NCBI RefSeq assembly: GCF_900637185.1
Contig: NZ_LR134352.1
Coordinates: 3,338,001-3,402,000, forward strand
Origin: Nocardia asteroides
Lineage (GTDB): Bacteria; Actinomycetota; Actinomycetes; Mycobacteriales; Mycobacteriaceae
DNA: 64,000 nucleotides
Reading direction: 5' to 3'
A program made the translations under genes and the position numbers. Positions 39,769 to 56,105 of this stretch are shown in pieces. Numbering within the stretch: position 1 is the first letter of the stretch; each line of letters starts with the position of its first letter. Under the pieces are notes generated by a model. That model did not search any database, was not told where the DNA came from, and saw nothing but the letters and a program-made list of their open reading frames with translations.

Positions 39769-39812
39769 GTAGCGCGCTACGCGTGCCCCGCCGCGGCCAC
39801 CGGGTCGAAACT
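39769..39812 (+). promoter_or_regulatory. Regulon promoter A (astacin-propeller gene)
   Basis: GTAGCGCGCTAC (39769-39780) continues as GCGTG; 26 nt later is the -10-like GAAACT (39807-39812). Predicted transcription start near 39819, leaving a leader of about 57 nt before the ATG at 39876. Confidence 0.7.
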
Positions 39813-39875
39813 TCCCGCACAGACCACCGATCTCCGCGTGTGCGCGGCACCGCGGACGGACAGGAAGCGCGGCCC

Positions 39876-41747
39876 ATGATCATCGACGACACCGCCCCGG
39901 TCGCGACCGGGACCGACGACACCGGCGAATTCCGCTCCGGCACCGGCGCGGGCACGACCCCGATACCCACCGCCACCCACGGCCTGCGCGAGGTCACCTA
40001 CGCGATCGTGGACGATCTCGCCGTCTTCGAAGGCGACATCGTGCTGGGGACCCTGGACGAGATCGCGGCGCGGCAGGGCGCGGAGGGCATCGCCATCACC
40101 GGCGCGAACTTCCGCTGGCCGAACGCGGTGATCCCCTACGAGGTCGATCCGGCGCTGCCGGGCAAGCAGCGGGTCAACGACGCGGTGGCACACTGGAATT
40201 CACGCACCCGGCTGCGGTTCGTGCCGCGCACCCCGGTGCACGGCGACTACATCCGGTTCGTGCCGAGCACCGCCAGCCGCTCGCCGGTGGGCAGGCAGGG
40301 CGGCATGCAGACGATCGAGCTCACCGGCTCCGCGCCCACCGGCACCGTGGTGCACGAGATGGGGCACGCGATCGGGCTCTGGCACGAGCAGAGCCGGGAG
40401 GACCGGGAACGGTTCGTCGAAGTGCGCCTGGCCCAGGTGAGCGCGGGGGACCGGCACAATTTCGCCCAGCACGTCACCGACGGTGACGATGTCGGCGGCT
40501 ACGACTTCGGGTCGATCATGCATTACCCGGCAACGGCTTTCAGCACCACCGGCCAGGACACCATCGTGCCGCGCGTCGCGCTGCCGCCCGGCGTCACCAT
40601 GGGCCAGCGCACGGCGCTCTCGGCGGGCGACGTCGCCGCCGCGCACGCCATCTACCCCGACTGGTCCGGCGTCGGCGACCGCTGGCGGAACATCGGCGGG
40701 GTCTTCCCCCGCACCGCGCCGGTGTCGGCGACCGCGCGGCGCACCGACCACCTGGACCTGTTCGTCACCGGCAACGACGGCCGGGTGTACACGTCGTGGT
40801 GGCACGCCGGGACGGAATGGTCGGGAATCGGCGACCGGTGGCGGAACATCGGCGGCGTCTTCCCGGCCGGCGCCACGGTCGCCCCGGTGGCGCGCACCGC
40901 GGACAACCTCGACCTGTTCACCGTCGGCAACGACGGGCGGGTGTACACGTCGTGGTGGCAGGCGGGTGCGGACTGGTCCGGGATCGGGGATCGGTGGCGG
41001 AACATCGGTGGCGTATTCCCGCGCACCGCACAGGTTTCCGTGACCGCGCGCCGGTCCGATCATCTGGATCTGTTCGTCACGGGCAACGACGGGCGGGTGT
41101 ACACGTCGTGGTGGCACGCGGGGTCGGACTGGTCCGGGATCGGGGACCGGTGGCGGAACATCGGTGGGGTGTTCCCGACGCGCGCGGCTGTCGCGGCGGT
41201 GGCCAGGACGGCGGACAATCTGGATCTGTTCGTCACCGGCAACGACGGGCGGGTGTACACCTCGTGGTGGCAGGCGGGGACGGACTGGTCCGGTATCGGG
41301 GACCGCTGGCGCGGTATCGGCGGCGTCTTCCCGGCAGGCGCGCCGGTGACGGTGGTCGCCCGCGGGCCCGATCATCTGGACCTGTTCATCACCGGCAACG
41401 ACGGCTGCGTCTACACCTCCTGGTGGCAGCAGGGCAGCGACTGGTCGGGCATCGGGAACCGATGGCGCAACATCGGCGGCGTCTTCCCGCCGGGCGCCCG
41501 GGTCGCCGCCGTGGCGCGCACCCGCGACAACCTCGACCTGTTCGTCACCGGCAACGACGGGCGGGTGTACACGTCGTGGTGGCAGGCGGGCTCGGACTGG
41601 TCCGGGATCGGGAACCGGTGGCGGAACATCGGCGGCGTCTTCCCCGCCGGCGGACCGGTGGCGGCTGTGGCCCGCACGGCGGGTGAGCTCGACGTGTTCG
41701 TCACCGCCAACGACGGACGGATCTCCACCTCGTGGTGGGAGCGGTAG
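39876..41747 (+). CDS. Astacin-family metalloprotease with C-terminal seven-bladed propeller
   Basis: A 623-aa protein. The protease domain (about 70-260) has the zinc motif HEMGHAIGLWHEQSR and the Met-turn SIMHYPATAF of M12A astacins. Seven 52-residue repeats follow, each built on WSGIGDRWRNIGGVFP and LDLFVTGNDGRVYTSWW, resembling DUF346/PLL-lectin propeller blades; seven copies would close one propeller, which may bind glycans. No Sec or Tat signal peptide is visible, so secretion would need another route or the protein acts inside the cell. It is preceded by a regulon promoter. Protease family certain, target unknown. Confidence 0.87.
   Translation: MIIDDTAPVATGTDDTGEFRSGTGAGTTPIPTATHGLREVTYAIVDDLAVFEGDIVLGTLDEIAARQGAEGIAITGANFRWPNAVIPYEVDPALPGKQRVNDAVAHWNSRTRLRFVPRTPVHGDYIRFVPSTASRSPVGRQGGMQTIELTGSAPTGTVVHEMGHAIGLWHEQSREDRERFVEVRLAQVSAGDRHNFAQHVTDGDDVGGYDFGSIMHYPATAFSTTGQDTIVPRVALPPGVTMGQRTALSAGDVAAAHAIYPDWSGVGDRWRNIGGVFPRTAPVSATARRTDHLDLFVTGNDGRVYTSWWHAGTEWSGIGDRWRNIGGVFPAGATVAPVARTADNLDLFTVGNDGRVYTSWWQAGADWSGIGDRWRNIGGVFPRTAQVSVTARRSDHLDLFVTGNDGRVYTSWWHAGSDWSGIGDRWRNIGGVFPTRAAVAAVARTADNLDLFVTGNDGRVYTSWWQAGTDWSGIGDRWRGIGGVFPAGAPVTVVARGPDHLDLFITGNDGCVYTSWWQQGSDWSGIGNRWRNIGGVFPPGARVAAVARTRDNLDLFVTGNDGRVYTSWWQAGSDWSGIGNRWRNIGGVFPAGGPVAAVARTAGELDVFVTANDGRISTSWWER
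40659..41744 (+). repeat. Seven in-frame tandem repeats of 156 bp
   Basis: Six complete 156-bp units and a seventh of 150 bp encode the propeller blades, starting with the GAC of DWSG. Segments such as ACGACGGGCGGGTGTACACG recur nearly unchanged, showing recent duplication or gene conversion. The alternation of HAG and QAG blade ends in the first four copies suggests duplication of a two-blade unit. Confidence 0.9.
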
Positions 41748-41755
41748 TCACCGCA

Positions 41756-41807
41756 CCCGGTGCCTGACCGGAATTCGAGTGGTCGGCTACTCGTGTCAGG
41801 CACCGGG
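41756..41807 (+). terminator. Hairpin enclosing a regulon operator
   Basis: The perfect 13-bp arms CCCGGTGCCTGAC (41756-41768) and GTCAGGCACCGGG (41795-41807) flank a 26-nt loop that contains operator F. It lies 8 bp after the astacin stop and upstream of the predicted start site of the next gene, so it probably terminates the astacin transcript. Confidence 0.6.
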
Positions 41808-41822
41808 GCGGGCGCCCACGCT
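41779..41822 (+). promoter_or_regulatory. Regulon promoter F (protease-hydrolase gene)
   Basis: GTGGTCGGCTAC (41779-41790) followed by TCGTG; 26 nt later lies CACGCT (41817-41822) as -10. Predicted start near 41829, with a 33-nt leader before the ATG at 41862. Confidence 0.65.
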
Positions 41823-41861
41823 GAGCACACCAGCTGCATCCTTCTCCGGGCGAGGTGACCC

Positions 41862-43853
41862 ATGGATACCGAAAGCGAAACCCGCACCGCCGCATGGCGT
41901 GAACAGATGGACGCCGCGTCGCGCCGCTTCGCCGCCAGCGCCCGCGCGCGCGACGAGGTCCAGCGCCGGCGCGAGGCGACCGAGTCCGACGTCGTCGACA
42001 CCCAGGAGCAGATCATCGCCCGCGCCGACCGTCTGCTCGGCACCGGCGAAGTGCCCGCCCAGGCGGTGATCGAACTGGGCAGGCAGGACCCGCTCGACAG
42101 CATCGGCGCGCTGGAACGGGTGATCGGCTTCGCCAACGACCTGCAGGCGGTCAACTTCCTGACCCGCGGCACCCGCGCGGCCGCCGCGGTGGCGCGGATC
42201 TCGCTGGCGCACAACGGCCGTGAGGTGCCGATGGGCACGGGGTCGCTGGTGTCACCGCACCTGCTGCTCACCAACAACCACGTGCTGCCCACCGTGGACC
42301 GGGCCGAGTCGGTGGTCGTCGAGTTCGCCGCCGAGGCGGGCATCGACAACGTTCCCACTCCGACCGTGCGCTTCCGGCTCGCCCCGCACGACTTCTTCGT
42401 CACGTCCAAGCATCTCGACTACACCCTGGTGCGGGTGGCGGACGGGGCGGACGGACTCGCGCCCGGCGCGAGCTTCGGCTGGAATCCGCTGATCGCCGAG
42501 CCGGGCAAGATCGTCATCGGCGAGGCGATGAACGTCATCGGGCATCCGCTGGGCAGGCTCAAGGAGATCTCGATCCGCGACAACCGGCTCGACCTGCAAC
42601 TCGACGAGTTCCTGCACTACACCTCCGACACCGAGCCGGGGAACTCCGGTTCACCGGTCTTCAACGACCAGTGGGAGATCGTCGCGCTGCACCACGCCGG
42701 CGTGCCGAAGAAGGACGCCGAGGGCGGGGTCCTGCGCAAGGACGGCAAGCTGTGGCAGACCGGCGACGGCGACGACGCGATCTGCTGGATCGCCAACGAG
42801 GGTGTCCGGGTGAGCGTGCTGCTGCGCGATCTCGGCTCCCGCGCCTTCGCACCGGCCCAGCGGTCGCTGCTCGACGAACTCGGCGCGGCGGCGGGCCTGA
42901 GCGCGCCCGCGCCGGTCGAGACGATCGTCGTCGCCGCGCCTGCGCCCGTGCCGGTCCCGGCCGCCGAGAGCGTCGCGCGTGGCGTGACCGGCAGGCCGAC
43001 GGCGTTCGGTGGCCGCCGCAGCGTGGTCTTCCTGCACGGGCGCGGCCAGCAGAACCGCGACCCCGTCGAGCTGCGCCGCACCTGGACGGCGGGCCTGAAC
43101 AAGGGCTTGACCCTGGCCGGGCTGCCGCCGATGGATCCCGCCGACATCCACTTCCCGTACTACGGCAACCAGCTCGTCGCCGGACTCGGGGCGCGCGAAG
43201 CGGTCGTCGACACCGGGTCGGCGCTCTACGAGAACCTGGTGGCCGAAGCCGCCCAGCGCGCGGGCATGCCCAGCGCCGAGAGCCTGCCCGCCGCACTGCC
43301 CACCGAGGAGGGCTTCGCCTTCGGCTCGGTCGTGCTGGGCCGGGTGCGCGATCAGCTGGGCTGGATCGCCGCGCGCAGCGGCCTCGACTCGCTGCTGATC
43401 GGCGCGATCTTCAAGGACGTCGCCGCCTACCTCGACGACGAGCAGGTCCGCAAGAGCGTGCTGGACACCGTCCTGACCGACATGCCGACCAGCGGCGAGC
43501 TGATCCTGGTCAGTCACAGCCTCGGCACCGTGGTGGCCATGGACCTGCTCACCCAGCTGCCCCGGGAGGTGACGGTCCGGCTGCTGGTCACCGCGGGCAG
43601 CCCGCTGGGCCTGGATGCCGTGCACACCAAGCTGCTCGCCGGCGGCCCGCGCAGGCCCGACCGCGTCGGCGACTGGCTCAACACCTGGTACGCCGGCGAT
43701 CCGATCGCCATCGGCTGCCCACTGCGTCCCACCTGGGGCCCGGACCTGCGCGAACTCCCGGTCGACAACCCCAAGGAGCGCGCGCACGACATCCCCGAAT
43801 ATCTCGCCCACGCGGCGGTGGCGGCGACGATCGGGCAGGCCGCGGCCGGCTGA
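41862..43853 (+). CDS. Trypsin-like serine protease fused to an alpha/beta hydrolase
   Basis: A 663-aa two-enzyme fusion. After a helical N-terminal region, a trypsin-like domain has His140 (LLTNNHVL), Asp186 (KHLDYTLVRV) and Ser262 (PGNSGSPVF). A Pro/Ala linker (about 350-375) leads to an alpha/beta-hydrolase domain starting SVVFLHGRGQQNRD, with the nucleophile Ser553 in VSHSLGTVVA and a late DIPEYLAHAAV that may supply the His. No signal peptide or membrane anchor is seen, so a cytosolic effector is likely. It converges on the metacaspase gene with a strong hairpin between them. Confidence 0.88.
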   Translation: MDTESETRTAAWREQMDAASRRFAASARARDEVQRRREATESDVVDTQEQIIARADRLLGTGEVPAQAVIELGRQDPLDSIGALERVIGFANDLQAVNFLTRGTRAAAAVARISLAHNGREVPMGTGSLVSPHLLLTNNHVLPTVDRAESVVVEFAAEAGIDNVPTPTVRFRLAPHDFFVTSKHLDYTLVRVADGADGLAPGASFGWNPLIAEPGKIVIGEAMNVIGHPLGRLKEISIRDNRLDLQLDEFLHYTSDTEPGNSGSPVFNDQWEIVALHHAGVPKKDAEGGVLRKDGKLWQTGDGDDAICWIANEGVRVSVLLRDLGSRAFAPAQRSLLDELGAAAGLSAPAPVETIVVAAPAPVPVPAAESVARGVTGRPTAFGGRRSVVFLHGRGQQNRDPVELRRTWTAGLNKGLTLAGLPPMDPADIHFPYYGNQLVAGLGAREAVVDTGSALYENLVAEAAQRAGMPSAESLPAALPTEEGFAFGSVVLGRVRDQLGWIAARSGLDSLLIGAIFKDVAAYLDDEQVRKSVLDTVLTDMPTSGELILVSHSLGTVVAMDLLTQLPREVTVRLLVTAGSPLGLDAVHTKLLAGGPRRPDRVGDWLNTWYAGDPIAIGCPLRPTWGPDLRELPVDNPKERAHDIPEYLAHAAVAATIGQAAAG

Positions 43854-43863
43854 GCCGACAGCG

Positions 43864-43898
43864 GCGAGGCGGGGACGGTGTCACCGTCCCCGCCTCGC
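43864..43898. terminator. Perfect 16-bp stem terminator between convergent genes
   Basis: The arms GCGAGGCGGGGACGGT and ACCGTCCCCGCCTCGC pair perfectly around a 3-nt loop. Located between the protease-hydrolase and metacaspase stops, it can end transcription in both directions. Confidence 0.8.
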
Positions 43899-43905
43899 GT
43901 GCCGC

Positions 43906-44760
43906 TCACGGGGTGAACGGGCGCTGGTCGAGGAACGCGGCGTCGGCATGGAGGGTGAACAGGTTCGGCACCTGGTCCGGCGGCATGATCGCCATGATCC
44001 GGCGATGGAACTGCGCGTAGCCGCCGGTGAACGCGCCGTCGTCCCACACCTCGAGCAGAGCGCCGGTGAACTGCCCGTGGCCCGGCCCGTCGTAGGACAG
44101 CTGCGAATCCTGGCAGCCCGACAGCAGCACGACACCCGCCTCGAGCACCGCGCGTGACTGCGGCCCGCTCAGCTCCTGGACGAACGAATACAGCTGGGCG
44201 CGGCGCTTGTTGTCCTCGGCCTGTACGTCCAGCGGCATGGCCTTGGCGCTGCCGTGGACGACCGTGCCGAGGCCGTCCGCGCCCGCCTCGGCCAGGCCGG
44301 CGATCGCGGTTCTGGCCTCGCGGGTGAACGCGTCGCGGGTGACGGTGCCGCTGTGGCAGCTGTCCGAGCACACCACGACCCGCACGCCCGCCGCGAACCG
44401 CGACCACATCCGGTACAGCTCGTCGTCGACGATCTGGCGGTCGAACGCCACCCAGGTCTCGTCCTGGCGGTCGTCCTCCTCGCCGTCCACGTCCGGAGTC
44501 TGGGCGCCGTGGCCGGAGTAGCTGATCAGCACCAGATCGCCCGCCCGCGCCGTCCTGGCCAGCCGGGCGATCTCGCCGATGATCGCGAACGAGGTCGCCG
44601 CCGCGTCGAGCAGGACCCGCGGGGCGGCGAAGCCCTGCGCGGCCGCGAGGGCGGCCATGGCCTCGGCGTCGTTGACGCAGCCGGCCAGCGCGCCGTCCCA
44701 GCCGTGATAGGCGGCGGGATCGACCCGGTTCAGTCCGATGTGCAGGGAATATCCACTCAT
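43906..44760 (-). CDS. Metacaspase-like cysteine protease (C14 family)
   Basis: A 284-aa caspase-fold protein with no added domains. The catalytic dyad is clear: His84 in ISYSGHGAQ and Cys135 in CSDSCHSG. The N-terminal strand SLHIGLNRVDPAAYHG and a metal-binding-like acidic loop (DVDGEEDDRQDE) are typical of type-I metacaspases and related bacterial caspases, which cleave after basic residues. No prodomain is present, so activation must depend on a partner or calcium. Promoter E lies upstream. A role in regulated proteolysis or cell death is inferred. Confidence 0.9.
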   Translation of the reverse strand: MSGYSLHIGLNRVDPAAYHGWDGALAGCVNDAEAMAALAAAQGFAAPRVLLDAAATSFAIIGEIARLARTARAGDLVLISYSGHGAQTPDVDGEEDDRQDETWVAFDRQIVDDELYRMWSRFAAGVRVVVCSDSCHSGTVTRDAFTREARTAIAGLAEAGADGLGTVVHGSAKAMPLDVQAEDNKRRAQLYSFVQELSGPQSRAVLEAGVVLLSGCQDSQLSYDGPGHGQFTGALLEVWDDGAFTGGYAQFHRRIMAIMPPDQVPNLFTLHADAAFLDQRPFTP

Positions 44761-44818: not shown

Positions 44819-44861
44819 ATCCTGCGGCGGCGGTGGACATCTCGATAGCGTGGTCGACTAC
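44819..44861 (-). promoter_or_regulatory. Regulon promoter E (metacaspase gene)
   Basis: Read on the minus strand, GTAGTCGACCAC (44861-44850) is followed after 25 nt by CAGGAT (44824-44819). Predicted start near 44812, leaving a 52-nt leader before the metacaspase ATG. Confidence 0.65.
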
Positions 44862-44892
44862 TCCACTCGCGGGGCCCGGCGGTCCAGGTGGG

Positions 44893-44935
44893 GTAGTGCC
44901 TTACTCGTTCGCTGCCGTGGCATTCGCGCGACGAT
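44893..44935 (+). promoter_or_regulatory. Regulon promoter H (33-codon ORF)
   Basis: GTAGTGCCTTAC (44893-44904) continues TCGTT; 25 nt later lies GACGAT (44930-44935). The distance to the GTG at 44942 is exactly that seen between promoter B and the patatin ATG. It is the least conserved palindrome of the set. Confidence 0.55.
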
Positions 44936-45076: not shown

Positions 45077-45119
45077 GTAGCGCACTACGCGTGTCGGCGT
45101 CGCCACGCGACCGTATCGT
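45077..45119 (+). promoter_or_regulatory. Regulon promoter B (patatin gene)
   Basis: GTAGCGCACTAC (45077-45088) followed by GCGTG, the same extension as site A. The -10 TATCGT (45114-45119) follows after 25 nt and the patatin ATG comes 6 nt later, so the transcript should be leaderless. Confidence 0.7.
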
Positions 45120-45125
45120 CGGTAC

Positions 45126-47837
45126 ATGACCGCGGCAGAGCAGCACGCCGGCTCGCCCGTGCGGGCGAGTGGGGACCACGTCACCTCCGGCCTGGCGACC
45201 ATCGAACAGGTCGGGCGTGGCCGGGTCTTCGCGGCCACCACCGGGATCGTGGTCTTCCTGGTGGCGGTGCAGGCGACGATGGCGTTCCCGCTCGGCGTGC
45301 GCACGCCGCAGGAATGCCACACGGCCGGGCTGCTCGGGCTGCTGGTCGGCGCCATGATGGCGCTGGCGGCGCCCACCGCGACCTACCGGTACTACGTCTA
45401 CATCTATTCGCTGCGCCTGGACCGCAAGTACGCCAGGTTCGCCCGGCAGGTCTTCGCGTGCTCGCTGCTGCTCTCGGTGATCGACGGCGTGGCCGACCTG
45501 CTGCTGGCGCTGCGGCTGCGTGCCGAGCCGCCCTCCTGCACCGGCGCCACCGTCACCCTGTTGCGCGTCCAGGCCGGTCTGCACCTCGGCTTCCTGCTGC
45601 TCGCGCTGGTCGTCACCGCCGCCATCTGGTATTTCGGCACCAGGAACCGGCTGGCCGGCGAACATCCGTCGCAGGCCCACTACGCCGAGACCACCGCCGC
45701 CCCGGCCGACCGTGACGGGCTGATCATCTGCTGCTCGGGCGGCGGCATCCGGTCGGCCTCGTTCTGCCTGGGCGCGTTGCAGGTGCTGCGTGACCGCGGC
45801 CGGTACCAGAGCGCCGGCGCGGTCGTCGGGGTGAGCGGCGGCGGCTACATCGCCGCGGCCATGCACATCGTGGGACGCACCTTCCCCGACCGCCCCTACT
45901 CGCTGGACTCCACCGAACTGGCCTATCTGCGCCGGCGCACGCGGTATCTCATGCCGCGCGGCACCGACAAGTTCCGGGCCGTGTTCTCGCTGCTGTACGG
46001 CATCGCGGTGAACGCCACCCTGATCGGCATCTCGCTGGTGGCGGTGTCGTGGTGGCTGGGCTGGCTGCTCGACGACATCGACATGCTCACCCGCACCGGC
46101 GACACCCTGCACCTGCACCTGGTCCCCGCGGGCGGCTACTGGTACCTCGCGATCGCGCTGGGCCCGTTCGTGCTCGCGCTGGCCGCGTTCGTGGTGGAGA
46201 AGGCGTGGGACCGGCTGACGATGGTGCCCGACCGGATGCGCAACATCTTCACCAAGGCGTCGCGGCTGCTGCTGGGCATCGGCGTCCCGCTCGCGCTGCT
46301 GCTCGTCGGTGTGCCCATCGCGCTGTACTGGCTGAGCCGGGCGCAGGAACGCAACGGCGCGCTGGCCACTCTCGTCGGCGGACTCGTCGACCCGGGTGGG
46401 CGCGGCACCGTCGCCTTCGGCGCGACCCTGCTGGCGCTGATCGGGCTCGGGCGCTCGGCCTGGAAGGGGCTGCACGCCGGCACCGAATCCGGCGGCTGGA
46501 CCGGCCGGATCCGGCAGCTGGTGCGCAAGCAGATCGCGCCGTGGCTGGGCAGCGCGCTCATCGTCGCGGTGGTCGTGGTGCTGCTGCTGCGCTGGACCAC
46601 CGTCTTCGCCACCGAACCGGCCGCGCGCTCGAACTGGACGCTGGCCTGGTGGCTCATCGGCATCGCGATCGCGATCAAGCTGTTCACCGACGCCAACCGC
46701 ACCTCGCTGCACACCTACTACCGCGAAGCGCTGTCGAAAGCCTTTCTCGTGGAGAAGGATCCACGGTCCCGGCAGGCGGTGCCGCTGCCGTACAGCACCC
46801 CGCTGCGGTACTCCGAGTACGGGCGGCCGGTCGACGGCGGACCACGCCTGGTCATCGCGGCCGCCGCGAACGCCGACGACGACGCGTTCGTGCCCACCCG
46901 CCGCGGCTGTGTGCCGTTCATCTTCGATCCGGACCGGATCGGGGTGGTGGGCGACCGCGCGCTCACCCAGGACGGGCGCCGCGTCACCGCGACCTACGAG
47001 CGGCAGGCCGACTTCCGGTACCGCGACGTGACCGTGCCCGCGGCCATGGCCATCAGCGGCGCCGCGTTCAGCCCGCTCACCGGCCGCGAGAGCGCGCGCA
47101 CCCGCCCGGTCCGCATCCTGCTCGCGCTGCTCAACGCGCGACTCGGGGTGTGGCTGCCGAACCCGTACTGGCAGCCGGTGCCGCAGGGCCGGGTCGGGGC
47201 GAAGATCCCGGCGGTGTGGAGCTGGGCGGACAAGCCGGGGCCCTACCGGCTGCTGCGCGAGGCGTTCGGCAATCCGTCGCTCTACGACCGGTGGCTCTAT
47301 GTCACCGACGGCGGCCACTACGACAATCTCGGCCTCGTCGAGGCGCTGCGCCGCCGCCCGGCCGCGGTGCTGGTGCTCGACGCCAGCGGCAGCCCCGACG
47401 ACCGGTTCTGCGCGCTGGCCGAGGCCATCGCGACCGCGCGCATGGACCACTGCATCGAGATCTGCGTCGACCTGCGCCCGATCTCGCGGGGCGACCGGAA
47501 ACGGGCTGCCCAGGCCTGGACCCGCGGCGTGGCCACCCATCTCGACGGCACGACGACCACCATCTACTACCTGCGCTCCCAGCTCATCGGCGGGCTCAGC
47601 TGGGACGTGGAGAACTACAGCACCACCCACCCCGACTTCCCCTACACCTCCACCGGCGACCAGCTCTACAGCGAATGGGACTTCGAGGCCTATCGGGCGC
47701 TGGGCCACGATGTGACCACGCGGGCACTGGCGGACCCGCCGTTCGCCGAACTCCTCGACGACGAGGCGGCCACGGGGGCGCCGGAGTCCAACGGAGACCA
47801 GGACCGGCCACCGCCGCTCGTGGCCCCGCGGTCGTAG
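45126..47837 (+). CDS. Membrane-embedded patatin-like phospholipase
   Basis: A 903-aa protein. The patatin oxyanion loop CSGGGIRSASFCLG (about 203-216), the nucleophile elbow VGVSGGGYIAA (Ser237) and the catalytic Asp of VTDGGHYDNLGL (Asp728) are all present. About four helices precede the catalytic domain, and at least six more (about 280-530) lie between Ser237 and Asp728, so the active site is split around a membrane domain. It probably deacylates membrane phospholipids. Without a ribosome site, it appears leaderless from promoter B. It converges with the next gene with no gap. Confidence 0.87.
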   Translation: MTAAEQHAGSPVRASGDHVTSGLATIEQVGRGRVFAATTGIVVFLVAVQATMAFPLGVRTPQECHTAGLLGLLVGAMMALAAPTATYRYYVYIYSLRLDRKYARFARQVFACSLLLSVIDGVADLLLALRLRAEPPSCTGATVTLLRVQAGLHLGFLLLALVVTAAIWYFGTRNRLAGEHPSQAHYAETTAAPADRDGLIICCSGGGIRSASFCLGALQVLRDRGRYQSAGAVVGVSGGGYIAAAMHIVGRTFPDRPYSLDSTELAYLRRRTRYLMPRGTDKFRAVFSLLYGIAVNATLIGISLVAVSWWLGWLLDDIDMLTRTGDTLHLHLVPAGGYWYLAIALGPFVLALAAFVVEKAWDRLTMVPDRMRNIFTKASRLLLGIGVPLALLLVGVPIALYWLSRAQERNGALATLVGGLVDPGGRGTVAFGATLLALIGLGRSAWKGLHAGTESGGWTGRIRQLVRKQIAPWLGSALIVAVVVVLLLRWTTVFATEPAARSNWTLAWWLIGIAIAIKLFTDANRTSLHTYYREALSKAFLVEKDPRSRQAVPLPYSTPLRYSEYGRPVDGGPRLVIAAAANADDDAFVPTRRGCVPFIFDPDRIGVVGDRALTQDGRRVTATYERQADFRYRDVTVPAAMAISGAAFSPLTGRESARTRPVRILLALLNARLGVWLPNPYWQPVPQGRVGAKIPAVWSWADKPGPYRLLREAFGNPSLYDRWLYVTDGGHYDNLGLVEALRRRPAAVLVLDASGSPDDRFCALAEAIATARMDHCIEICVDLRPISRGDRKRAAQAWTRGVATHLDGTTTTIYYLRSQLIGGLSWDVENYSTTHPDFPYTSTGDQLYSEWDFEAYRALGHDVTTRALADPPFAELLDDEAATGAPESNGDQDRPPPLVAPRS

Positions 47838-48593
47838 TCATTCGCTCCACGCCGGGCCGGCCATCGCCGACGCCGTGAGCACCTGTTCGGTCTTGGTCAG
47901 CTCGGTCGCGACGGCCAGGCCGTGCGCGCGTACCGCGTCGTGCAGCCGCTGCTGCGTGACCAGCGCGCGCGCCCGCAGAGCCTCGGCGGGCTCGCCGGGC
48001 GCCGGCGCCACGGTCAGCGACAGATCGAACAGGTCGAGGCCGCCGACGGCCCAGCGTTCGGCGTCGACGGTGAAGTCGCCGAGCACGACGCCGGTCCATG
48101 CCGTCGCGGCGATGGGGCCCACCGCGCGCAGGTGGTCGACCGCCACCCCCGGCGGGGTGCAGCTCACCAGGAACTGGCGCTGCGCCGAATCCAGCACCTC
48201 GGTCAGATCCTCGCCGCGCAGTGCCGCGACCCGCAGGGTGCCGGGCGGGCGGCTGCTGCGCACGGCGGCCGACAGTTCCCGCCTGCCACCGCACCAATCC
48301 CCGGCTATCCGGTAGCGAACCCCCTCGTCGGTGAACGGCGCCGCCCAGCGCCCCACCAGCTGGGCGGGCAGACAGGGCCGCAGCGTGACGGTGACGTCGT
48401 CGTGGTCGCCGCTGCGCAGCCGGATGGCGATGCGGTCGGCCAGCAGCGTCGGCGGGCCGCCCACGCCGGGCAGCCGGGGCTCGGCGAACCAGACGTCGCG
48501 GCCCACCGCGGCGGCGTTGGTGCACCCGAGGCGGGCCTGGGCGTCGACGAGATCGCCGTCGAGATTGACCTTGATGTCGATCGGAGTAGTCAC
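47838..48593 (-). CDS. Hypothetical protein of the regulon, CYTH-like pattern
   Basis: A 251-aa soluble protein without signal or membrane segments. The early segment (DVWFAEPRLPG, then ADRIAIRLRSGDHDDVTVTL) loosely recalls the strand order of CYTH/triphosphate-tunnel proteins, and the C-terminal third is helical, but key CYTH residues are not clear and I do not claim the family. GTG 48593 is chosen because it lies 6 nt after the -10 of promoter G; no strong ribosome site exists, so it is probably leaderless. Its stop abuts the patatin stop. Confidence 0.65.
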   Translation of the reverse strand: MTTPIDIKVNLDGDLVDAQARLGCTNAAAVGRDVWFAEPRLPGVGGPPTLLADRIAIRLRSGDHDDVTVTLRPCLPAQLVGRWAAPFTDEGVRYRIAGDWCGGRRELSAAVRSSRPPGTLRVAALRGEDLTEVLDSAQRQFLVSCTPPGVAVDHLRAVGPIAATAWTGVVLGDFTVDAERWAVGGLDLFDLSLTVAPAPGEPAEALRARALVTQQRLHDAVRAHGLAVATELTKTEQVLTASAMAGPAWSE

Positions 48594-48599
48594 CTCTGC

Positions 48600-48643
48600 A
48601 GGGTTACCCACGCACCCGCCCCGGGACGCGCGTAATTCGCTAC
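48600..48643 (-). promoter_or_regulatory. Regulon promoter G (47838-48593 gene)
   Basis: On the minus strand, GTAGCGAATTAC (48643-48632) is followed by GCGCG and, after 26 nt, AACCCT (48605-48600). The start codon follows 6 nt later. Confidence 0.55.
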
Positions 48644-48695: not shown

Positions 48696-48738
48696 GTAGT
48701 CCACTACTCGTGACACCGCCGGGGGCGGGGCGGAAACT
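48696..48738 (+). promoter_or_regulatory. Regulon promoter D (peroxidase operon)
   Basis: The perfect palindrome GTAGTCCACTAC (48696-48707), extended by TCGTG, is followed after 25 nt by GAAACT (48733-48738). A -35-like GTGACA lies just after the palindrome. The centre of the palindrome is about 43 bp before the predicted start, a position typical for activators. Confidence 0.72.
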
Positions 48739-50607: not shown

Positions 50608-51698
50608 CATACCTGCGTTTCCGTGAGGACCTGGAACAGCCGCGCCCCGACGAGGAGCGCGACATCGACAAGATCATCGCGGTCCTGCGCGACAACAACG
50701 AACGCGCCTACCGCAAATACAAGCGCGGACTGCGCGACGCGCACGCCAAGAGCCACGGCATCCTGCGCGGCGAACTGACCGTGCCCGCGGGCCTGCCCGC
50801 CGAACTGGCCCAGGGCATGTTCGCCACCCCGAAGACGTATCCGATCATCGCCCGGCTGTCGAGCACGTCCGGGGTGATCCGCAGCGACCAGCTGCGCGGT
50901 GTGCGCGGACTCGGCATCAAGGTACTGGGGGTGGAGGGGCCGCGGGCGCTGCCCGACGACGACGCCACCACCCAGGACTTCATCATGGTCACCCACCGCG
51001 AGTTCCTGTTCGCCGACGCGCACGCCTACCTCACCCGCGGCATGCCCACGGCCTGGGTGCTGGCCCGGCTGCCCGACCCGGTGCTGCAGGCGGGCAGCGA
51101 CCTCGTGGCGGCCGTGGACAAGCACGTGCTGCGCCGGATCGGCAAGCAGGTGCCGGACAACCTGGGCGTCTTCGTCGCGCCCAACACCCACATCCTCGGT
51201 GAGACCTTCTACAGTTCGGCGCCGTTGCGGCACGGCGACTACGTCGCCAAGCTGCTCTACGCGCCGGTGTCGCCGGAAGTGGTTGCGCTGCAGGGTCAGC
51301 CGGTGAGCCCGGACGCGGGGGTGAACGCGCACCAGGATCTGGTCGTCGACTTCTTCGCCGCGCACAGCGCCACCTACGAGCTGCGCGCCCAGCTGTGCAC
51401 CGACAGCGGCACCATGCCGATCGAGGACGCGACGGTGCCCTGGCCGGAACCGGAATCCGCGCACGTCACCATCGCGACCATCCGGTTCGACATCCAGGAC
51501 CCCTACACCCCGCAACGCCGCGCCTACGGTGACGACGTGCTCTCGTTCAACTCCTGGCGGGGACTGGACGCGCATCGCCCGCTCGGCTCGATCAACCGGC
51601 TCAAGAAGCGGGTGTACGAGGCGTCGAGCAACTACCGGCACGACGTGAACAACGCGCCGCGGCTGGAACCACGGGACGCGACCGAACTGCCATCATGA
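50604..51698 (+). CDS. Catalase-like haem protein
   Basis: A 364-aa protein of the small catalase-like group, shorter than true catalases at about 480-750 aa. A distal His is offered by AKSHGILRGELTVPAGL, and the C-terminus has the family stretch SWRGLDAHRPLGSINRLKKR followed by VYEASSNYR. Relatives include catalase-related allene oxide synthases, which act on fatty-acid hydroperoxides made by a partner dioxygenase. Its 4-bp overlap with the alpha-DOX-like gene supports such a partnership. The proximal Tyr could not be assigned with certainty. Confidence 0.78.
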   Translation: MTYLRFREDLEQPRPDEERDIDKIIAVLRDNNERAYRKYKRGLRDAHAKSHGILRGELTVPAGLPAELAQGMFATPKTYPIIARLSSTSGVIRSDQLRGVRGLGIKVLGVEGPRALPDDDATTQDFIMVTHREFLFADAHAYLTRGMPTAWVLARLPDPVLQAGSDLVAAVDKHVLRRIGKQVPDNLGVFVAPNTHILGETFYSSAPLRHGDYVAKLLYAPVSPEVVALQGQPVSPDAGVNAHQDLVVDFFAAHSATYELRAQLCTDSGTMPIEDATVPWPEPESAHVTIATIRFDIQDPYTPQRRAYGDDVLSFNSWRGLDAHRPLGSINRLKKRVYEASSNYRHDVNNAPRLEPRDATELPS

Positions 51699-51714
51699 CC
51701 ACCGCTCAGGTTCG

Positions 51715-51743
51715 TTGTGAGGGAGGCGGGCGGGAACTAGAAT
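51715..51743 (+). promoter_or_regulatory. Internal sigma-70-type promoter for the LuxR-type regulator
   Basis: TTGTGA (51715-51720), a 17-bp spacer and TAGAAT (51738-51743) give a good housekeeping promoter. The ATG at 51752 lies 8 nt after the -10, so a leaderless transcript is likely. It would give basal regulator independent of promoter D. Confidence 0.6.
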
Positions 51744-51751
51744 TTTGGTGC

Positions 51752-54334
51752 ATGGGCGAACTGTGGCGACTGCTGGATCGCCCCGTCGAATACGACGCCG
51801 TCCGTGCCGCTTTGACGAACGGTGGCGCCGGTGGTGTCGTGCTCGTCGGCGCCGCCGGAATCGGTAAGACCACCCTGGCGCGGCTGGTCGGCTCGCAGCT
51901 GCCCGCGCCGGTGCGCTGGGTGGCCTGTACCGCGTCGTCCCAGGCGATTCCGCTGGGCGCGTTCGCCCCCTGGATCGCCGCCTCGGCCTCCCGTGACCCG
52001 CTCGCCCTGCTGCATTCGGCGCGGGAGAACATGCTCGACCGGCCCGGCACCGTGATCGGCGTCGACGACGCCCATCTGCTCGACACCCTGTCCGCGACCC
52101 TGGTGCACCAGATCGCCGTCGACCGCAGCGCCCGCATCGTGGCCACGGTCCGGAGCGGGGAACCGGTTCCCGACGCGATCACCTCACTGTGGAAGGACGG
52201 GTTCCTCGAACGGGTCGAACTGGAACCGCTGACCAAGCGCCAGTGCGTCGCCCTCGTCGAGACCGTCCTCGGCGGCACGCTCGAGGGACTCAGCGCCGAT
52301 GTGATGTGGGAGTCCTCCGGCGGCAATCCGCTGTTCCTGCGCAACATGGTCGAGGGCGCCGTGGAGGCGCGCACGCTCACCGACGTGCACGGGGTGTGGC
52401 AGCTGCGCGGGCCCACCGCGGTGCCGTCGGGGCTGGTCGATCTGCTCGACGAGCGCCTCGCCAGGGCGGGCGAGCCGGTGCTGTCCGCGCTGCGGATGCT
52501 GGCCGTCTACGAACCGCTCGACATCGACATCCTCACCGAGCTGGTGGGCGTCGAGGCCGTCGACGCCGCCGAGCTCACCGGCCTGATCCGGGTGTGCAGG
52601 CACGGACCCGCCGTCGACGTGCGATTCAGTCATCCGCTGCTGGGCGAGGTGATCCGCCGACGGGCAGGCACCGCGGCGGCCCGCAAGCGGCGTGGCCGCA
52701 TCGTCGAGACCCTGCGCGATCGCAGCCTCGACACCCCGGCGGACCGGATCCGGTTGGCGCAGCTGTGCGTCGACAGCGACCAGCCGATCGACATCGTGCT
52801 GCTGATCAACGCCGCCAAGGACGCCGTCGCCCTGGCGAACCTGCCGCTCGGTGAACGGCTCGCGCGCGCGGCCTGCGAGCGCTGCGGTGGCCTGCGGGCG
52901 GCCGAACTGCTCGCGCGGGCGCTGCTGTGGCAGGGCAGACCGCAGGAGGCCGACGAGATCCTGGCCCGGTTCGATCCGGACCGCCTCGACCAGTTGCAGC
53001 TGGTGCAGTGGGGGCTGTTGCGCGCGTCGCTGCAGTTCTGGTCGCTCGGTGACGTGGCGCGCGGCCATGAACTCATCGACCTGCTGGTGGCCCGGGTGCA
53101 GCATCCGGCGGCCCGGCTGACCGTCGACGCCTTCCGGGCGGCCATGGCGGTGCACGAGAACCGGCTCGACGTCGGGGTCGCGGAGTCCGAGCGGGTGATC
53201 GCCGACCCGAACTCGCCCCGCCAGGCCGTCGACTTCGCGGCGTTCGCGCTCGGGCTCGCGCTGCCCTACGTCGGCCGCGGCGCCGAGGTCGGCGCCATCG
53301 CGGCCCGGATCAGGGCCGAACAGAAATCCACCGACGGCATCGTCCGGGTGATGGTGCGCTACGGGGACGTGCTGGCGCTGACGATGATCGGTGAGCTCGA
53401 CCAGGCCGAACAGCGCGCCTCGGAGTACCGGGAGTTCTCCTCGGCCGGGCAGTTCGTCGGCTGGGCGATCGCCCGCATCGCGATCGGGGTGGTGGCGACC
53501 TGTCGCGGCCGCTTCCGGGCTGCGATCGCCGCCTTCGAGCAAGCGCTGGCCGCCCTCAACGCCGAGAACACGCTGCCCTGGCAGCTGCCCGCCCGGCTGG
53601 TCCTGGCACGTGCGTACGCGGCCCTGGGTGAGGCGGACCAGGCCGAACGGGTGCTCGCCGATGCCGAGGAGCACAGCGGGCCCTACATGGCGCTGCACGA
53701 GCCACAGCGGCTCATCGCGCGCGCCTGGGTGGCCGCCGCCGAACACAGTCAGCACGCCGCCATCGACCTGGCGCGCAAGGCCGCCGACCTCGCGCACCGC
53801 ACCGGCCAGTTCGCGCAGGAGGCCGAGGCGCTGCACCACGCGACCCGCTTCGGCGACCGCACGCTGGCGCCCCGGCTCGCGGCCGTCGCCACCCGCCTGC
53901 AGGGGCCCGCCGCGGCGATCTACGCCCGGCACGCCGCGGCGCTGGCGCACTCCGACACCGCCGCGCTGGCCGCCGTCAGCGTGGAATTCGAGAACCTGGG
54001 CATGCTGCTGGCCGCCGCCGACGCCGCCGCCCAGGCGGTCCCGATCTTCGATCACGCCGGCCGGCGCAGGCCCAGCGCGGAGGCGGCGGCCCGCGCGGTG
54101 GCGCTGGCGGCCCGCTGCGACGGGGCCGGCTCGCCGGCGATCACGGCGGCCGCCCGCCCGCTGCCCATCACCGAACGGGAACGGGAGATCGCCGCGCTCA
54201 TCGGGCGCGGGCTGTCCAACCGGGCCATCGCCGAGCGGCTGTGCGTCTCGGTGCGGACCGTGGAGGGCCACATCTACCGGGCCTGCATCAAACTCGACGC
54301 CTCCGATCGCGATCAGCTGTCCAAACTGATCTGA
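51752..54334 (+). CDS. Large ATP-binding LuxR-family regulator (LAL-type)
   Basis: An 860-aa protein. The N-terminal AAA/STAND-like ATPase has Walker A GAAGIGKTTL (about 33-42) and Walker B VIGVDDAHLL (about 105). A long helical, TPR-like middle region follows, and the C-terminus is a GerE/LuxR helix-turn-helix, ITEREREIAALIGRGLSNRA then IAERLCVSVRTVEGHIYRAC. LAL proteins are ligand-gated activators. It is the third gene of the operon under promoter D, making it the prime candidate to bind the repeated palindromes. An alternative ATG at 51695 overlaps the catalase-like stop; 51752 is preferred for its own promoter. Confidence 0.87.
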   Translation: MGELWRLLDRPVEYDAVRAALTNGGAGGVVLVGAAGIGKTTLARLVGSQLPAPVRWVACTASSQAIPLGAFAPWIAASASRDPLALLHSARENMLDRPGTVIGVDDAHLLDTLSATLVHQIAVDRSARIVATVRSGEPVPDAITSLWKDGFLERVELEPLTKRQCVALVETVLGGTLEGLSADVMWESSGGNPLFLRNMVEGAVEARTLTDVHGVWQLRGPTAVPSGLVDLLDERLARAGEPVLSALRMLAVYEPLDIDILTELVGVEAVDAAELTGLIRVCRHGPAVDVRFSHPLLGEVIRRRAGTAAARKRRGRIVETLRDRSLDTPADRIRLAQLCVDSDQPIDIVLLINAAKDAVALANLPLGERLARAACERCGGLRAAELLARALLWQGRPQEADEILARFDPDRLDQLQLVQWGLLRASLQFWSLGDVARGHELIDLLVARVQHPAARLTVDAFRAAMAVHENRLDVGVAESERVIADPNSPRQAVDFAAFALGLALPYVGRGAEVGAIAARIRAEQKSTDGIVRVMVRYGDVLALTMIGELDQAEQRASEYREFSSAGQFVGWAIARIAIGVVATCRGRFRAAIAAFEQALAALNAENTLPWQLPARLVLARAYAALGEADQAERVLADAEEHSGPYMALHEPQRLIARAWVAAAEHSQHAAIDLARKAADLAHRTGQFAQEAEALHHATRFGDRTLAPRLAAVATRLQGPAAAIYARHAAALAHSDTAALAAVSVEFENLGMLLAAADAAAQAVPIFDHAGRRRPSAEAAARAVALAARCDGAGSPAITAAARPLPITEREREIAALIGRGLSNRAIAERLCVSVRTVEGHIYRACIKLDASDRDQLSKLI

Positions 54335-54346
54335 CACGATGGGGGC

Positions 54347-55441
54347 ATGCCGACGTCCCGTACCCGGCTGGGTGCGCTGCTGATCGCCCTCGCGGCGAGC
54401 GTGGCGACCGCGTGCGCGCGCGAGGAGGGACCGCGGCCGCCGATCGCGACGTCCACCGCGGCGAGCAGCCCGGCAGGCCTGCCCGATCTGGGCGCGCCCG
54501 AGGAGATCGCGCGCGGCCTCGACGTCCCCTGGGGACTGGCCTTCCTGCCCGACGGCACGGCCCTGGTGGCCGAGCGGGATTCGGGCCGCATCCTGCGGGT
54601 CGCGGCGGGGCGCGCACCGGAGCCGTTCGCGGAGGTGCCCGGGGTCGCCGCGCGCGGTGAGGGCGGACTGCTCGGCCTCGCCGTCGCCGCGGACCACGCC
54701 GAGAACCCGTGGGTCTACGCGTATCACACCGCGGCCGAGGACAACCGGATCGTCCGGGTGCGGCCGGGGGAACCGGCCCAGGTCGTGTTCGCCGGCATCG
54801 CGAAGGCGGGCAACCACAACGGTGGCCGGATCGCGTTCGGACCCGACGGGATGCTCTACGCCGGCACCGGCGACGCGGGGGACACCGCGCGCTCCCAGGA
54901 CCCCGCGAGTCCCAACGGCAAGATCCTGCGCCTCACCCCCGACGGCGCGCCCGCGCCGGGCAATCCGGTCCCCGGATCCCCGGTGTTCAGCCTCGGCCAC
55001 CGTAATGTGCAGGGCCTCGCATGGGACGGCACGGGCCGGTTGTTCGCCGCCGAGTTCGGCCAGAACCGGTGGGACGAGGTCAATCTCGTCGAGCCGGGGC
55101 GCAACTACGGGTGGCCCGTCGTCGAGGGAGCCGGGGGCGCGGAGCGGGGTTATGCCGACCCGCTGCTCACCTGGTCCACCGCCGAAGCCTCGCCGTCGGG
55201 TCTGGCCATCTCGGGCGACACGCTGTATCTGGCCGCACTGCGCGGCGAAAGACTGTGGACGGCAACGCTGTCCGAGGGTCACGCGTCGAATCCGGTAGCG
55301 TTCCTGGACAATTCGTACGGGCGATTGCGGACCGTGGCCGTGGCGCCGGACGGCGCGCTCTGGCTGACCACCTCGAACACCGACGGCCGCGGCGACATCC
55401 GCGACGGCGACGACCGCATCCTGCGATTCCCGGCGCGCTGA
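54347..55441 (+). CDS. PQQ-dependent sugar/aldose dehydrogenase-like lipoprotein
   Basis: A 364-aa beta-propeller protein of the soluble glucose dehydrogenase / YliI family: GLDVPWGLAFLPDGTALVAE, GGLLGLAVAADHAEN, KAGNHNGGRIAFGPDGMLYAGTG and SLGHRNVQGLAWD are typical. The N-terminus is a short signal peptide ending in VATAC, a plausible though weak lipobox, so it would be anchored outside the membrane. It lies 12 bp after the LuxR-type gene. The substrate and cofactor use are inferred from family. Confidence 0.82.
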   Translation: MPTSRTRLGALLIALAASVATACAREEGPRPPIATSTAASSPAGLPDLGAPEEIARGLDVPWGLAFLPDGTALVAERDSGRILRVAAGRAPEPFAEVPGVAARGEGGLLGLAVAADHAENPWVYAYHTAAEDNRIVRVRPGEPAQVVFAGIAKAGNHNGGRIAFGPDGMLYAGTGDAGDTARSQDPASPNGKILRLTPDGAPAPGNPVPGSPVFSLGHRNVQGLAWDGTGRLFAAEFGQNRWDEVNLVEPGRNYGWPVVEGAGGAERGYADPLLTWSTAEASPSGLAISGDTLYLAALRGERLWTATLSEGHASNPVAFLDNSYGRLRTVAVAPDGALWLTTSNTDGRGDIRDGDDRILRFPAR

Positions 55442-55540
55442 TCGTCGCGGTGGCCGCTTCGCGGGCGGCGGCTCGCCCGGTGCCCGCGGACGGCGGGCCC
55501 GGCGCCGTAGCCATCCGTTCGGAACCGGAGCGCTGACCCG

Positions 55541-55579
55541 CACCCCCGGGCCGGTCGGCGCACGGTCGGCCCAGGGGTG
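55541..55579. terminator. Hairpin between convergent genes
   Basis: The arms CACCCCCGGGCCGGTC and GGTCGGCCCAGGGGTG pair with one mismatch and wobbles around a 7-nt loop. It can end both the dehydrogenase operon and the thioredoxin transcript. Confidence 0.6.
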
Positions 55580-55584
55580 TCGGC

Positions 55585-55908
55585 TCAGTACGCGCCGGAC
55601 AGTTCGTCCAGCAGACGCCGCTTGGATCGCGCGCCGACGAGCGTCCGCACCGGCGCGCCGTCGCGGAACAGCATCAGCGTCGGCATCGACAGCACCGCGT
55701 AGTCGGCGGTGGTCCGGGGATTGGCGTCCACATCGAGCCGCACGATCCGCAGGCCGGTCTCCGCGCGCGCGATGTCGTCGAGCACCGGCTCGATCATCTT
55801 GCACGGCGGGCACCACGTGGCCGTGAACTCCACGAGCACCGGCCCTTCCGCGGCGAGTACCGCCGTCGCGAACGTCGCATCGCTCACCGCGCCGACAACC
55901 TCGCTCAT
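55585..55908 (-). CDS. Thioredoxin-like protein with WCPPC active site
   Basis: A 107-aa thioredoxin-fold protein: VLVEFTATWCPPCKMIEPVL contains the redox pair, here CPPC instead of the usual CGPC. The cis-Pro loop MPTLMLFRDGAP and LDVDANPRTTADYAV are canonical. The ATG at 55908 follows a GAAGGGAGAG ribosome site; a GTG six codons upstream is less likely. CPPC tends to alter redox potential. It is probably a cytoplasmic disulfide reductase. Confidence 0.88.
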   Translation of the reverse strand: MSEVVGAVSDATFATAVLAAEGPVLVEFTATWCPPCKMIEPVLDDIARAETGLRIVRLDVDANPRTTADYAVLSMPTLMLFRDGAPVRTLVGARSKRRLLDELSGAY

Positions 55909-56061
55909 GCTCTCTCCCTTCGTCACCGGGGCAGTCCCGCCCCTGTCACCGGCACGCTAGGGATTGACGCCGAGGTCAAGGCAAGCCCCGAGCCATCGGC
56001 CTGTCCGGAATGCCACGGCCGTGAATCCGCGCTGTCGCCGTGCGCCTCGGCCCGGAGGCGA

Positions 56062-56105
56062 GTAGTTCACTACGCTCGGCCCGCGCCGCCTCGCCCGGCG
56101 AGACT
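56062..56105 (+). promoter_or_regulatory. Regulon promoter C (56163-56825 gene)
   Basis: The perfect palindrome GTAGTTCACTAC (56062-56073), followed by GCTCG and 26 nt later GAGACT (56100-56105). Predicted start near 56112, with a 51-nt leader as at promoter D. Read on the minus strand there is no suitable -10, so it faces this gene and not the thioredoxin. Confidence 0.7.

What the first reader, a model, noticed from the sequence alone, without database searches (positions are those of the whole stretch)
39769..56105. Eight-site regulon built on a GTAGT-NN-ACTAC palindrome with fixed promoter spacing
The 12-bp dyad or a variant occurs at 39769, 41779, 44850 (minus), 44893, 45077, 48632 (minus), 48696 and 56062. 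Most copies continue with [G/T]CG or close variants. In all eight a NANNNT hexamer starts exactly 25 or 26 nt after the dyad, pointing at the adjacent gene. The dyad centre lies about 43 bp before the predicted start, a classic activator position. The genes are an astacin-propeller, protease-hydrolase fusion, metacaspase, small ORF, patatin, unknown protein, alpha-DOX/catalase/LuxR/dehydrogenase operon and a membrane protein. Such regular geometry over 16 kb is hard to explain by chance.
Basis: partly seen in the sequence, partly recalled or inferred. Interest (0 to 1): 0.93.

Follow-up and report, generated by a model that had tools for sequence, protein, structure and literature searches.

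The report
LuxR-controlled self-digestion regulon in Nocardia
A conserved DNA switch in Nocardia, most likely read by a large signal-sensing LuxR-type activator, sits at the same distance before genes for proteases, a nuclease, a lipase, cell-wall enzymes and immune-like proteins, as if one regulator could fire a cell-digesting arsenal at once.

Summary
All eight sites exist, each with a NANNNT hexamer 25 or 26 nt after the dyad. A matrix trained on 72 sites from other genomes, scanned over 904 kb of this genome, ranks the eight window sites and five others first (scores 20.8-42.7; next 18.2). The full operator is about TCGRGTAGTNNACTACTCGTG and predicts a class II activator position (centre about -43.5/-44.5).

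The cognate regulator is very probably the 879-aa STAND/LAL-type LuxR protein (51695-54334). Operator and hexamer precede its operon in 32 of 36 loci of Nocardia, Gordonia and mycobacteria, whichever gene comes first. LuxR-linked alpha-dioxygenase genes carry the site (14 of 15); unlinked ones do not (0 of 13). Six genomes without the LuxR hold 1 motif match, 53 with it hold 114.

The regulon reaches far beyond the window: DNA/RNA endonuclease, trypsin- and subtilase-like genes, peptidoglycan-hydrolase-like and LysM proteins, a TIR-WD40 protein, an 8xMP membrane protein. Several effectors show no obvious signal peptide, so I favour a transcriptionally fired self-digestion or defence programme. 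The regulation is strongly supported by sequence comparison; DNA binding was not tested and the purpose is inferred. The paper searches named listed no description of this operator or regulon.

The parts
39769..39812 (+). Site A: dyad 39769-39780 and -10 hexamer 39807-39812 (GAAACT)
   Evidence: matrix score 29.9
39876..41747 (+). Astacin metalloprotease with beta-propeller lectin region, HExxHxxGxxH present
41779..41822 (+). Site B: dyad 41779-41790 and -10 hexamer 41817-41822 (CACGCT)
   Evidence: score 36.7
41862..43853 (+). Trypsin-like protease with a C-terminal hydrolase-like region (hydrolase part by inspection only)
   Evidence: Trypsin_2; GNSG motif
43906..44760 (-). Caspase-family peptidase (C14), YSGHG and DSCHSG motifs present
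44819..44861 (-). Site C: dyad 44861-44850 and -10 hexamer 44824-44819 (CAGGAT), minus strand
   Evidence: score 20.8, the weakest of the eight
44893..44935 (+). Site D: dyad 44893-44904 and -10 hexamer 44930-44935 (GACGAT); probably a relic promoter of hyp132, a gene not found in the window
   Evidence: score 30.0
45077..45119 (+). Site E: dyad 45077-45088 and -10 hexamer 45114-45119 (TATCGT); a start 7 nt after the hexamer would fall on the ATG at 45126 (leaderless)
   Evidence: score 29.6
45126..47837 (+). Patatin-like phospholipase with hydrophobic stretches (by inspection)
   Evidence: E 5e-4, below the Pfam cut-off; GGGIR and GVSG motifs
47838..48593 (-). CYTH/triphosphate-tunnel fold protein, conserved beside the LuxR operon
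   Evidence: site with hexamer upstream in 19 of 19 relatives tested
48600..48643 (-). Site F: dyad 48643-48632 and -10 hexamer 48605-48600 (AACCCT), minus strand
   Evidence: score 28.0
48696..48738 (+). Site G: dyad 48696-48707 and -10 hexamer 48733-48738 (GAAACT), promoter of the LuxR operon
   Evidence: score 42.7, best in the 1.70 Mb scanned
48796..50607 (+). Fatty acid alpha-dioxygenase
   Evidence: An_peroxidase E 3e-104; PDB 4kvj E 1e-120, 4hhr E 1e-110
50643..51698 (+). Catalase-related fold protein (g7); start approximate
51695..54334 (+). STAND/LAL-type LuxR regulator: ATPase with Walker A, TPR, C-terminal LuxR HTH (about 54167-54319)
54347..55441 (+). Glucose/sorbosone dehydrogenase-like, 13 bp after LuxR; no site of its own in relatives tested (0 of 2)
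56062..56105 (+). Site H: dyad 56062-56073 and -10 hexamer 56100-56105 (GAGACT)
   Evidence: score 27.8
56163..56825 (+). 220-aa protein with one hydrophobic stretch by inspection, no confident family
   Evidence: sequence

Best explanation
The sites are operators of one autoregulated activator, the STAND/LAL-type LuxR protein at 51695-54334. When its sensor is triggered it is expected to oligomerise and bind TCGRGTAGTNNACTACTCGTG as dimers just upstream of, and overlapping, a weak -35 element. From there it would recruit RNA polymerase to a NANNNT -10 box 25-26 nt downstream (class II activation). Its own operon (alpha-dioxygenase, catalase-related protein, LuxR) is a target, giving positive feedback. 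The other targets form a set of digestive and immune-like effectors: astacin, trypsin-like, subtilase-like and caspase-family proteases, a patatin, a DNA/RNA endonuclease, LysM and M23-type proteins, a TIR-WD40 protein and membrane proteins. Several of these show no obvious signal peptide, so I infer that the programme digests the producing cell, as a defence or suicide response. Shown here by sequence: operator, geometry, conservation, linkage to LuxR, regulon members. Inferred: DNA binding, activation rather than repression, transcription starts, trigger, purpose. The confidence given is for the regulatory account; I put the self-digestion or defence purpose at about 0.5.
For: Matrix from 72 foreign sites ranks the eight window sites and five others first in 904 kb of this genome; the best scores of three shuffled replicates are 20.1, 12.9 and 11.3. 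A further 800 kb gives one hit above 11.1, at 4543333 (26.0). Offset peak at 25/26. Operator plus hexamer before the LuxR operon in 32 of 36 loci at score 7.5 or more, 30 of them at 8.5 or more: before alpha-dioxygenase in Nocardia/Gordonia, directly before the catalase-related gene in mycobacterial loci without alpha-dioxygenase, directly before LuxR in N. jinanensis L070. Background rate for random 260-bp stretches of these loci: 1.8% at 8.5, real sites included. Site with hexamer before the CYTH-fold gene in 19 of 19, hyp132 6 of 6, trypsin 4 of 4, astacin 3 of 3, caspase 3 of 4, patatin 1 of 2 (threshold 9). Alpha-dioxygenase genes next to the LuxR carry the site in 14 of 15, unlinked ones in 0 of 13 (threshold 8.5). 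LuxR-present genomes: 114 matches in 53 (control 31); LuxR-absent: 1 in 6 (control 1); permutation p 0.0001, Fisher p 0.0003. Of 21 exact GTAGTNNACTACTCGTG matches in 59 Nocardia genomes (reversed control 0), 20 have the hexamer at 25/26. Recognition helix nearly the same in both LuxR clades. Nuclease genes behind a site recur in other genomes (L129, L181), as do LysM proteins (L186; own L239, L254).
Against: No expression or binding data; activation is inferred from position. The core pattern is not enriched genome-wide, and the longer pattern gives 20 rows against 15 for its reversed control. The matrix training required the hexamer. One strong operator half (3591762, 27.9) has no hexamer and scores 18.2 in all; L078 has a perfect 18-bp operator before alpha-dioxygenase but no hexamer at 25/26. 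L065 and L091 lack a site before LuxR and L095 could not be assessed (contig end). Five of 53 LuxR-positive genomes have no match at one mismatch; the six LuxR-negative genomes may be related to each other, and the unlinked alpha-dioxygenases are more diverged (45-53% identity), so both contrasts are partly confounded by descent; the loci overlap. Some sites in other genomes precede genes that do not look like effectors by inspection: a TetR-like protein (L127), an ABC-transporter-like ATPase (L194), a DUF4097 protein (L190), a carboxylase-like ORF (L060 17144). Proteins tested give only single-gene matches to known defence models. No signal-peptide predictor was run, and catalytic motifs of the subtilase-like and second trypsin-like proteins were not all found by my simple patterns.
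Confidence: 0.87

Rival explanations
1. The sites are read by a different transcription factor encoded elsewhere, and the LuxR is merely one target.
For: No binding data; two assessable LuxR loci (L065, L091) have no site before LuxR; two LuxR clades with nearly the same helix exist, so either might act.
Against: Site tracks the LuxR operon through changes of its first gene; motif scarce in genomes without the LuxR; alpha-dioxygenase genes not linked to LuxR lack it.
Confidence: 0.09
2. The regulon is an envelope- or lipid-stress response, comparable to the IniR-iniBAC system of mycobacteria: alpha-dioxygenase and the catalase-related protein process fatty acids or hydroperoxides, and the hydrolases recycle damaged material, without killing the cell.
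For: IniR is described as a signal transduction ATPase with a LuxR-like DNA-binding domain tied to envelope stress (PMC5760070: title and start of abstract in a search listing, and passages). Alpha-dioxygenase and catalase-related fold are clear; LysM, M23 and PG-binding domains are in the regulon.
Against: Match to the IniR model is to the HTH only (23.2 bits against a cut-off of 750). Caspase, TIR, endonuclease and several proteases fit conflict effectors better than repair (inference).
Confidence: 0.25
3. The regulon makes weapons against other organisms (competitors, grazing eukaryotes or hosts), released by secretion or lysis; the astacin resembles LegP and carries a lectin-like propeller.
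For: NCBIfam LegP match at 299.6 bits (cut-off 300) and beta-propeller lectin matches below their cut-offs.
Against: The N termini looked at show no obvious signal peptide, except a lipoprotein-like one (L255); no phage-sheath protein (contractile injection) found in the genome.
Confidence: 0.25
4. Chance matches in a GC-rich genome.
For: The core pattern alone is no more frequent than its reversed control.
Against: Independent matrix, offset peak, cross-genus conservation.
Confidence: 0.01

Closest known systems
MalT/LAL-type STAND LuxR activators
   Same: ATPase with Walker A, TPR region and C-terminal LuxR HTH in one long protein; activator-like operator position.
   Different: Operator GTAGTNNACTAC and a target set of proteases, nuclease, TIR and alpha-dioxygenase; of 10 papers listed (of 37), most concern antibiotic production in Streptomyces (titles and abstract starts only).
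IniR-iniBAC of mycobacteria
   Same: Signal transduction ATPase with LuxR-like DNA-binding domain (PMC5760070, passages).
   Different: [quoted passage not shown] similarity here is limited to the HTH.
NucA-trypsin conflict systems of eLife 2020 (PMC7159879, section 32 read and passages)
   Same: Endonuclease_NS, trypsin-like and S8 peptidases occur together; nuclease and trypsin-like genes adjacent in L056.
   Different: There they share operons or polypeptides, in some with STAND or EAD1 components, mostly in alphaproteobacteria; here they are scattered genes joined by a shared operator. The paper's one hit for LuxR is in its reference list.
Quorum-sensing LuxR and lux box (recalled)
   Same: Operator near -42 overlapping -35, autoregulated operon with an enzyme that could make a small molecule.
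   Different: STAND/TPR sensor; no LuxI-like synthase seen; no signal shown.

Membership tests
LAL/MalT-type STAND LuxR regulator | N-terminal ATPase with Walker A | tested here: met
   AAA_22 match, GAAGIGKT at residue 52
LAL/MalT-type STAND LuxR regulator | TPR sensor region | tested here: met
   TPR_19 above and TPR_12 below cut-off
LAL/MalT-type STAND LuxR regulator | C-terminal LuxR (GerE) HTH | tested here: met
   residues 825-875
LAL/MalT-type STAND LuxR regulator | Inducer-dependent oligomerisation | not testable with these tools
   needs protein
Class II activator promoter | Operator centred near -42 and overlapping -35 | tested here: inconclusive
   Centre -43.5/-44.5 if the hexamer is the -10 box; starts not mapped
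IniR | Full-length match to the IniR model | tested here: not met
   23.2 bits against cut-off 750, HTH only
NucA-trypsin conflict system | Endonuclease_NS and trypsin-like peptidase encoded together | tested here: inconclusive
   both in the regulon but about 47 kb apart in this genome (41862-43853 and L059:7263-8168); adjacent in L056; EAD1 not tested
Known anti-phage defence system (PADLOC) | Regulon proteins forming a complete described system | tested here: inconclusive
   17 protein submissions gave single-gene matches only, best caspase 54.4, HEAT-ARM_XIII 39.7, SAVED_TIR 33.5 bits; no system-level caller was run
Fatty acid alpha-dioxygenase | Full-length similarity to solved alpha-dioxygenases | tested here: met
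   4kvj, residues 25-601, E 1e-120
CYTH/triphosphate tunnel enzymes (251-aa protein) | Tunnel fold | tested here: met
   predicted fold matches 6yp4, 3sy3, 5a68 with probability 1.00, TM-score (query) 0.45-0.54; catalytic residues not tested

The most novel reading that the evidence does not exclude
An oxylipin-autoinduced death circuit: the alpha-dioxygenase and catalase-related protein make a fatty-acid oxylipin that the STAND-LuxR senses; positive feedback commits the cell, and all effector promoters fire together, so a bacterium executes a caspase/TIR/nuclease/lysin death programme by transcription rather than by post-translational triggering. A second, genus-wide LuxR clade with nearly the same recognition helix would place a small structured RNA under the same switch.
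Probability: 0.15. Interest if true: 0.92.

Novelty: new variant of a known kind. Interest (0 to 1): 0.72.

Why it matters
Caspase, TIR, trypsin and nuclease effectors in bacteria are usually thought of as parts of separate, self-contained defence operons that are switched on at protein level (established view, recalled). A single operator that joins many such genes across a chromosome, beside the gene of its probable activator, would show that an actinobacterium can deploy them as one coordinated programme. It gives a concrete list of genes, a DNA site and a regulator to test, and a way into the unknown role of bacterial alpha-dioxygenases.

Tried and rejected
Contractile injection payloads: LysM/phage-tail-X-like proteins suggested it, but no phage sheath (PF04984) is found in the genome. 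IniR membership: only the HTH matches. Recognition by an alternative sigma factor: not excluded by experiment, but the left half of the palindrome is conserved about as strongly as the right, which fits a dimeric regulator better. Known RNA family for the hairpin transcript: no Rfam match at gathering threshold in window, L096 and L100. Profile search of g7 against PDB sequences: no match; its fold was found by structure instead. Papers: none of the held papers has all of IniR, iniBAC, LuxR and 'binding site', none has three of metacaspase, patatin, LuxR, astacin; searches listed nothing on this operator or regulon, seen as listings and abstract starts except the two papers named. Candidate sites not counted as sure: 3591762 (no hexamer, 18.2), 1969596 (24.4, before a DUF6875 gene, doubtful), window 32530 minus (2 mismatches). 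L125 was dropped from the hairpin alignment (18 candidates, 17 aligned) because only its loop sequence matched.
Full report
WHAT WAS CLAIMED AND WHAT IS THERE. The genome (G000, one contig of 6.98 Mb; window 3338001-3402000) is most likely a Nocardia: the nearest named loci, up to 88% identical in the LuxR, are titled Nocardia. The core alone is not enriched genome-wide: 333 matches with up to two mismatches against 432 for the reversed pattern.

IS IT MORE THAN CHANCE. In 16 Nocardia loci (window included) 108 site-orientations score 10 or more; the hexamer stands at offset 25 in 22 and at 26 in 28, and at no other offset from 0 to 49 in more than 8. I built a matrix from 72 distinct sites of other genomes, none from G000, and scanned 904 kb of G000. 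The 13 best hits are the eight window sites and 596062, 3429159, 3477812, 3700395 and 3700406 (scores 20.8-42.7; next 18.2; best of three shuffled replicates 20.1, 12.9, 11.3). The training rule required the hexamer, which favours hits having one; the operator part alone scores 14.4 or more in all 13, but 3591762 reaches 27.9 on the operator and has no hexamer. A further 800 kb gave one hit above 11.1, at 4543333 (26.0). A longer pattern (20 letters, 17 specified) over the whole genome at up to two mismatches gave 20 rows, 15 for its reversed control; scored with the matrix it added 2624310 (35.4), 5130490 (29.7), 1425772 (24.8) and 1969596 (24.4). That makes 18 promoter-like sites above 20; other sites in the 5.3 Mb not scanned with the matrix may have been missed.

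THE OPERATOR. Consensus about TCGRGTAGTNNACTACTCGTG; the dyad extends symmetrically by CGR/TCG, the final TG is right-hand only and may belong to a -35 element. If the hexamer spans -12 to -7, the dyad centre is at -43.5 or -44.5.

WHO READS IT. The LuxR protein is a STAND/LAL type: ATPase, TPR, LuxR HTH. Of 36 loci with its relatives in Nocardia, Gordonia and mycobacteria, 32 have operator and hexamer before the LuxR operon at score 7.5 or more (30 at 8.5 or more). L078 has a perfect operator without the hexamer, L065 and L091 have none before LuxR, L095 ends in the gene. Random 260-bp stretches reach 8.5 in 1.8%. The first gene changes (alpha-dioxygenase, catalase-related gene or LuxR itself) but the site stays. 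In 251 family genomes 28 alpha-dioxygenase genes were found; of the 15 next to the LuxR, 14 carry the site at 8.5 or more, of the 13 unlinked none does (best 8.0) (linkage read from the coordinates). Among 59 Nocardia genomes, 53 have a LuxR relative at E 1e-40: these hold 114 matches to GTAGTNNACTACTCGTG at one mismatch (control 31; 5 of 53 have none), the six others hold 1 (control 1). Descent partly confounds both contrasts, and some loci occur in more than one of these sets.

A SECOND CLADE. Most of the 59 genomes carry a relative about 50-53% identical; in L096 it lies beside an adenylosuccinate-synthetase-like gene (by inspection). Its recognition helix is nearly the same, VSVRTVEGHLYRA against VSVRTVEGHIYRA. 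Ten of 20 fetched loci show a site; for seven of the other ten (G002, G010, G012, G022, G035, G037, G040) an exact 17-base match lies within 10 kb of the gene but outside the fetched stretch. Of 21 exact 17-base matches in 59 genomes (control 0), 20 have the hexamer at 25/26 and 11 precede a short sequence with a hairpin GACCGC...CGAGGGGU...GCGGUC. In 17 aligned copies 3 of 11 predicted pairs show a both-sided change. No Rfam family matched in the three sources searched.

WHAT IS REGULATED. In the window: astacin with lectin-like propeller, trypsin-like protease, caspase-family protease, patatin, CYTH-fold protein, the alpha-dioxygenase/catalase-related/LuxR operon, a protein with one hydrophobic stretch. 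Outside: Endonuclease_NS (3429159), 8xMP membrane protein (596062), trypsin-like and subtilase-like genes sharing one palindrome (3700395/3700406), M23 with a glycoside-hydrolase-like domain (3477812), LysM proteins (2624310, 4543333), TIR-WD40 (1425772), a glycine-rich lipoprotein-like protein (5130490), perhaps a DUF6875 protein (1969596). In other genomes sites precede further nucleases (L129, L181), a LysM protein (L186) and a papain-family protease (L065), but also genes that do not look like effectors (L127, L190, L194, L060 17144). The alpha-dioxygenase matches solved plant enzymes over its length; g7 has a catalase-related fold; the 251-aa protein a CYTH fold.

HOW IT MOST LIKELY WORKS. 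Activated STAND-LuxR binds the palindromes, recruits polymerase at class II promoters, amplifies itself and turns on the effectors. I put 0.87 on this regulatory account. For the purpose, self-digestion or defence is my first choice (about 0.5), with envelope stress and weapons against others as rivals. N termini of several effectors printed show no obvious signal peptide; no predictor was run. Gene content around the LuxR varies among relatives while sites persist before the genes that remain, which fits conflict genes.

COMPARISON WITH THE KNOWN. eLife 2020 (PMC7159879; section 32 read, and passages) describes NucA with trypsin and S8 peptidases as a conflict system; its one hit for LuxR is in the reference list. 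IniR (PMC5760070, passages) is a described signal transduction ATPase with a LuxR-like domain in a related genus, but matches only in the HTH. The operator and regulon were not in the listings of searches.

Noticed in passing
L116:1545-1614 and 16 further loci: Short conserved hairpin transcript candidate behind the same promoter in many Nocardia genomes, convergent with a membrane-peptidase-like gene (by inspection) in L096; possible small RNA.
   Followed up: partly
L247:1583-3019 (G000 about 1425.8 kb): TIR-WD40 protein with a hydrophobic stretch between, behind a site; weak similarity to TIR defence models.
   Followed up: partly
L254:281-1444 and L122:640-1431: LysM-LysM protein with an esterase-like C-terminal part that looks like a phage LysB-type lysin (by inspection, no Pfam match for that part); L122 appears related.
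   Followed up: no
window 45114-45126: The patatin promoter predicts a leaderless transcript starting at the ATG.
   Followed up: no
L094: A mycobacterial metagenome contig with six sites in 13 kb, including before a 51% LuxR and before a cyclase-AAA protein.
   Followed up: partly
L016 (G000 3700392): One palindrome with -10 boxes at offset 25 on both strands serves a divergent trypsin-like/subtilase-like gene pair.
   Followed up: partly
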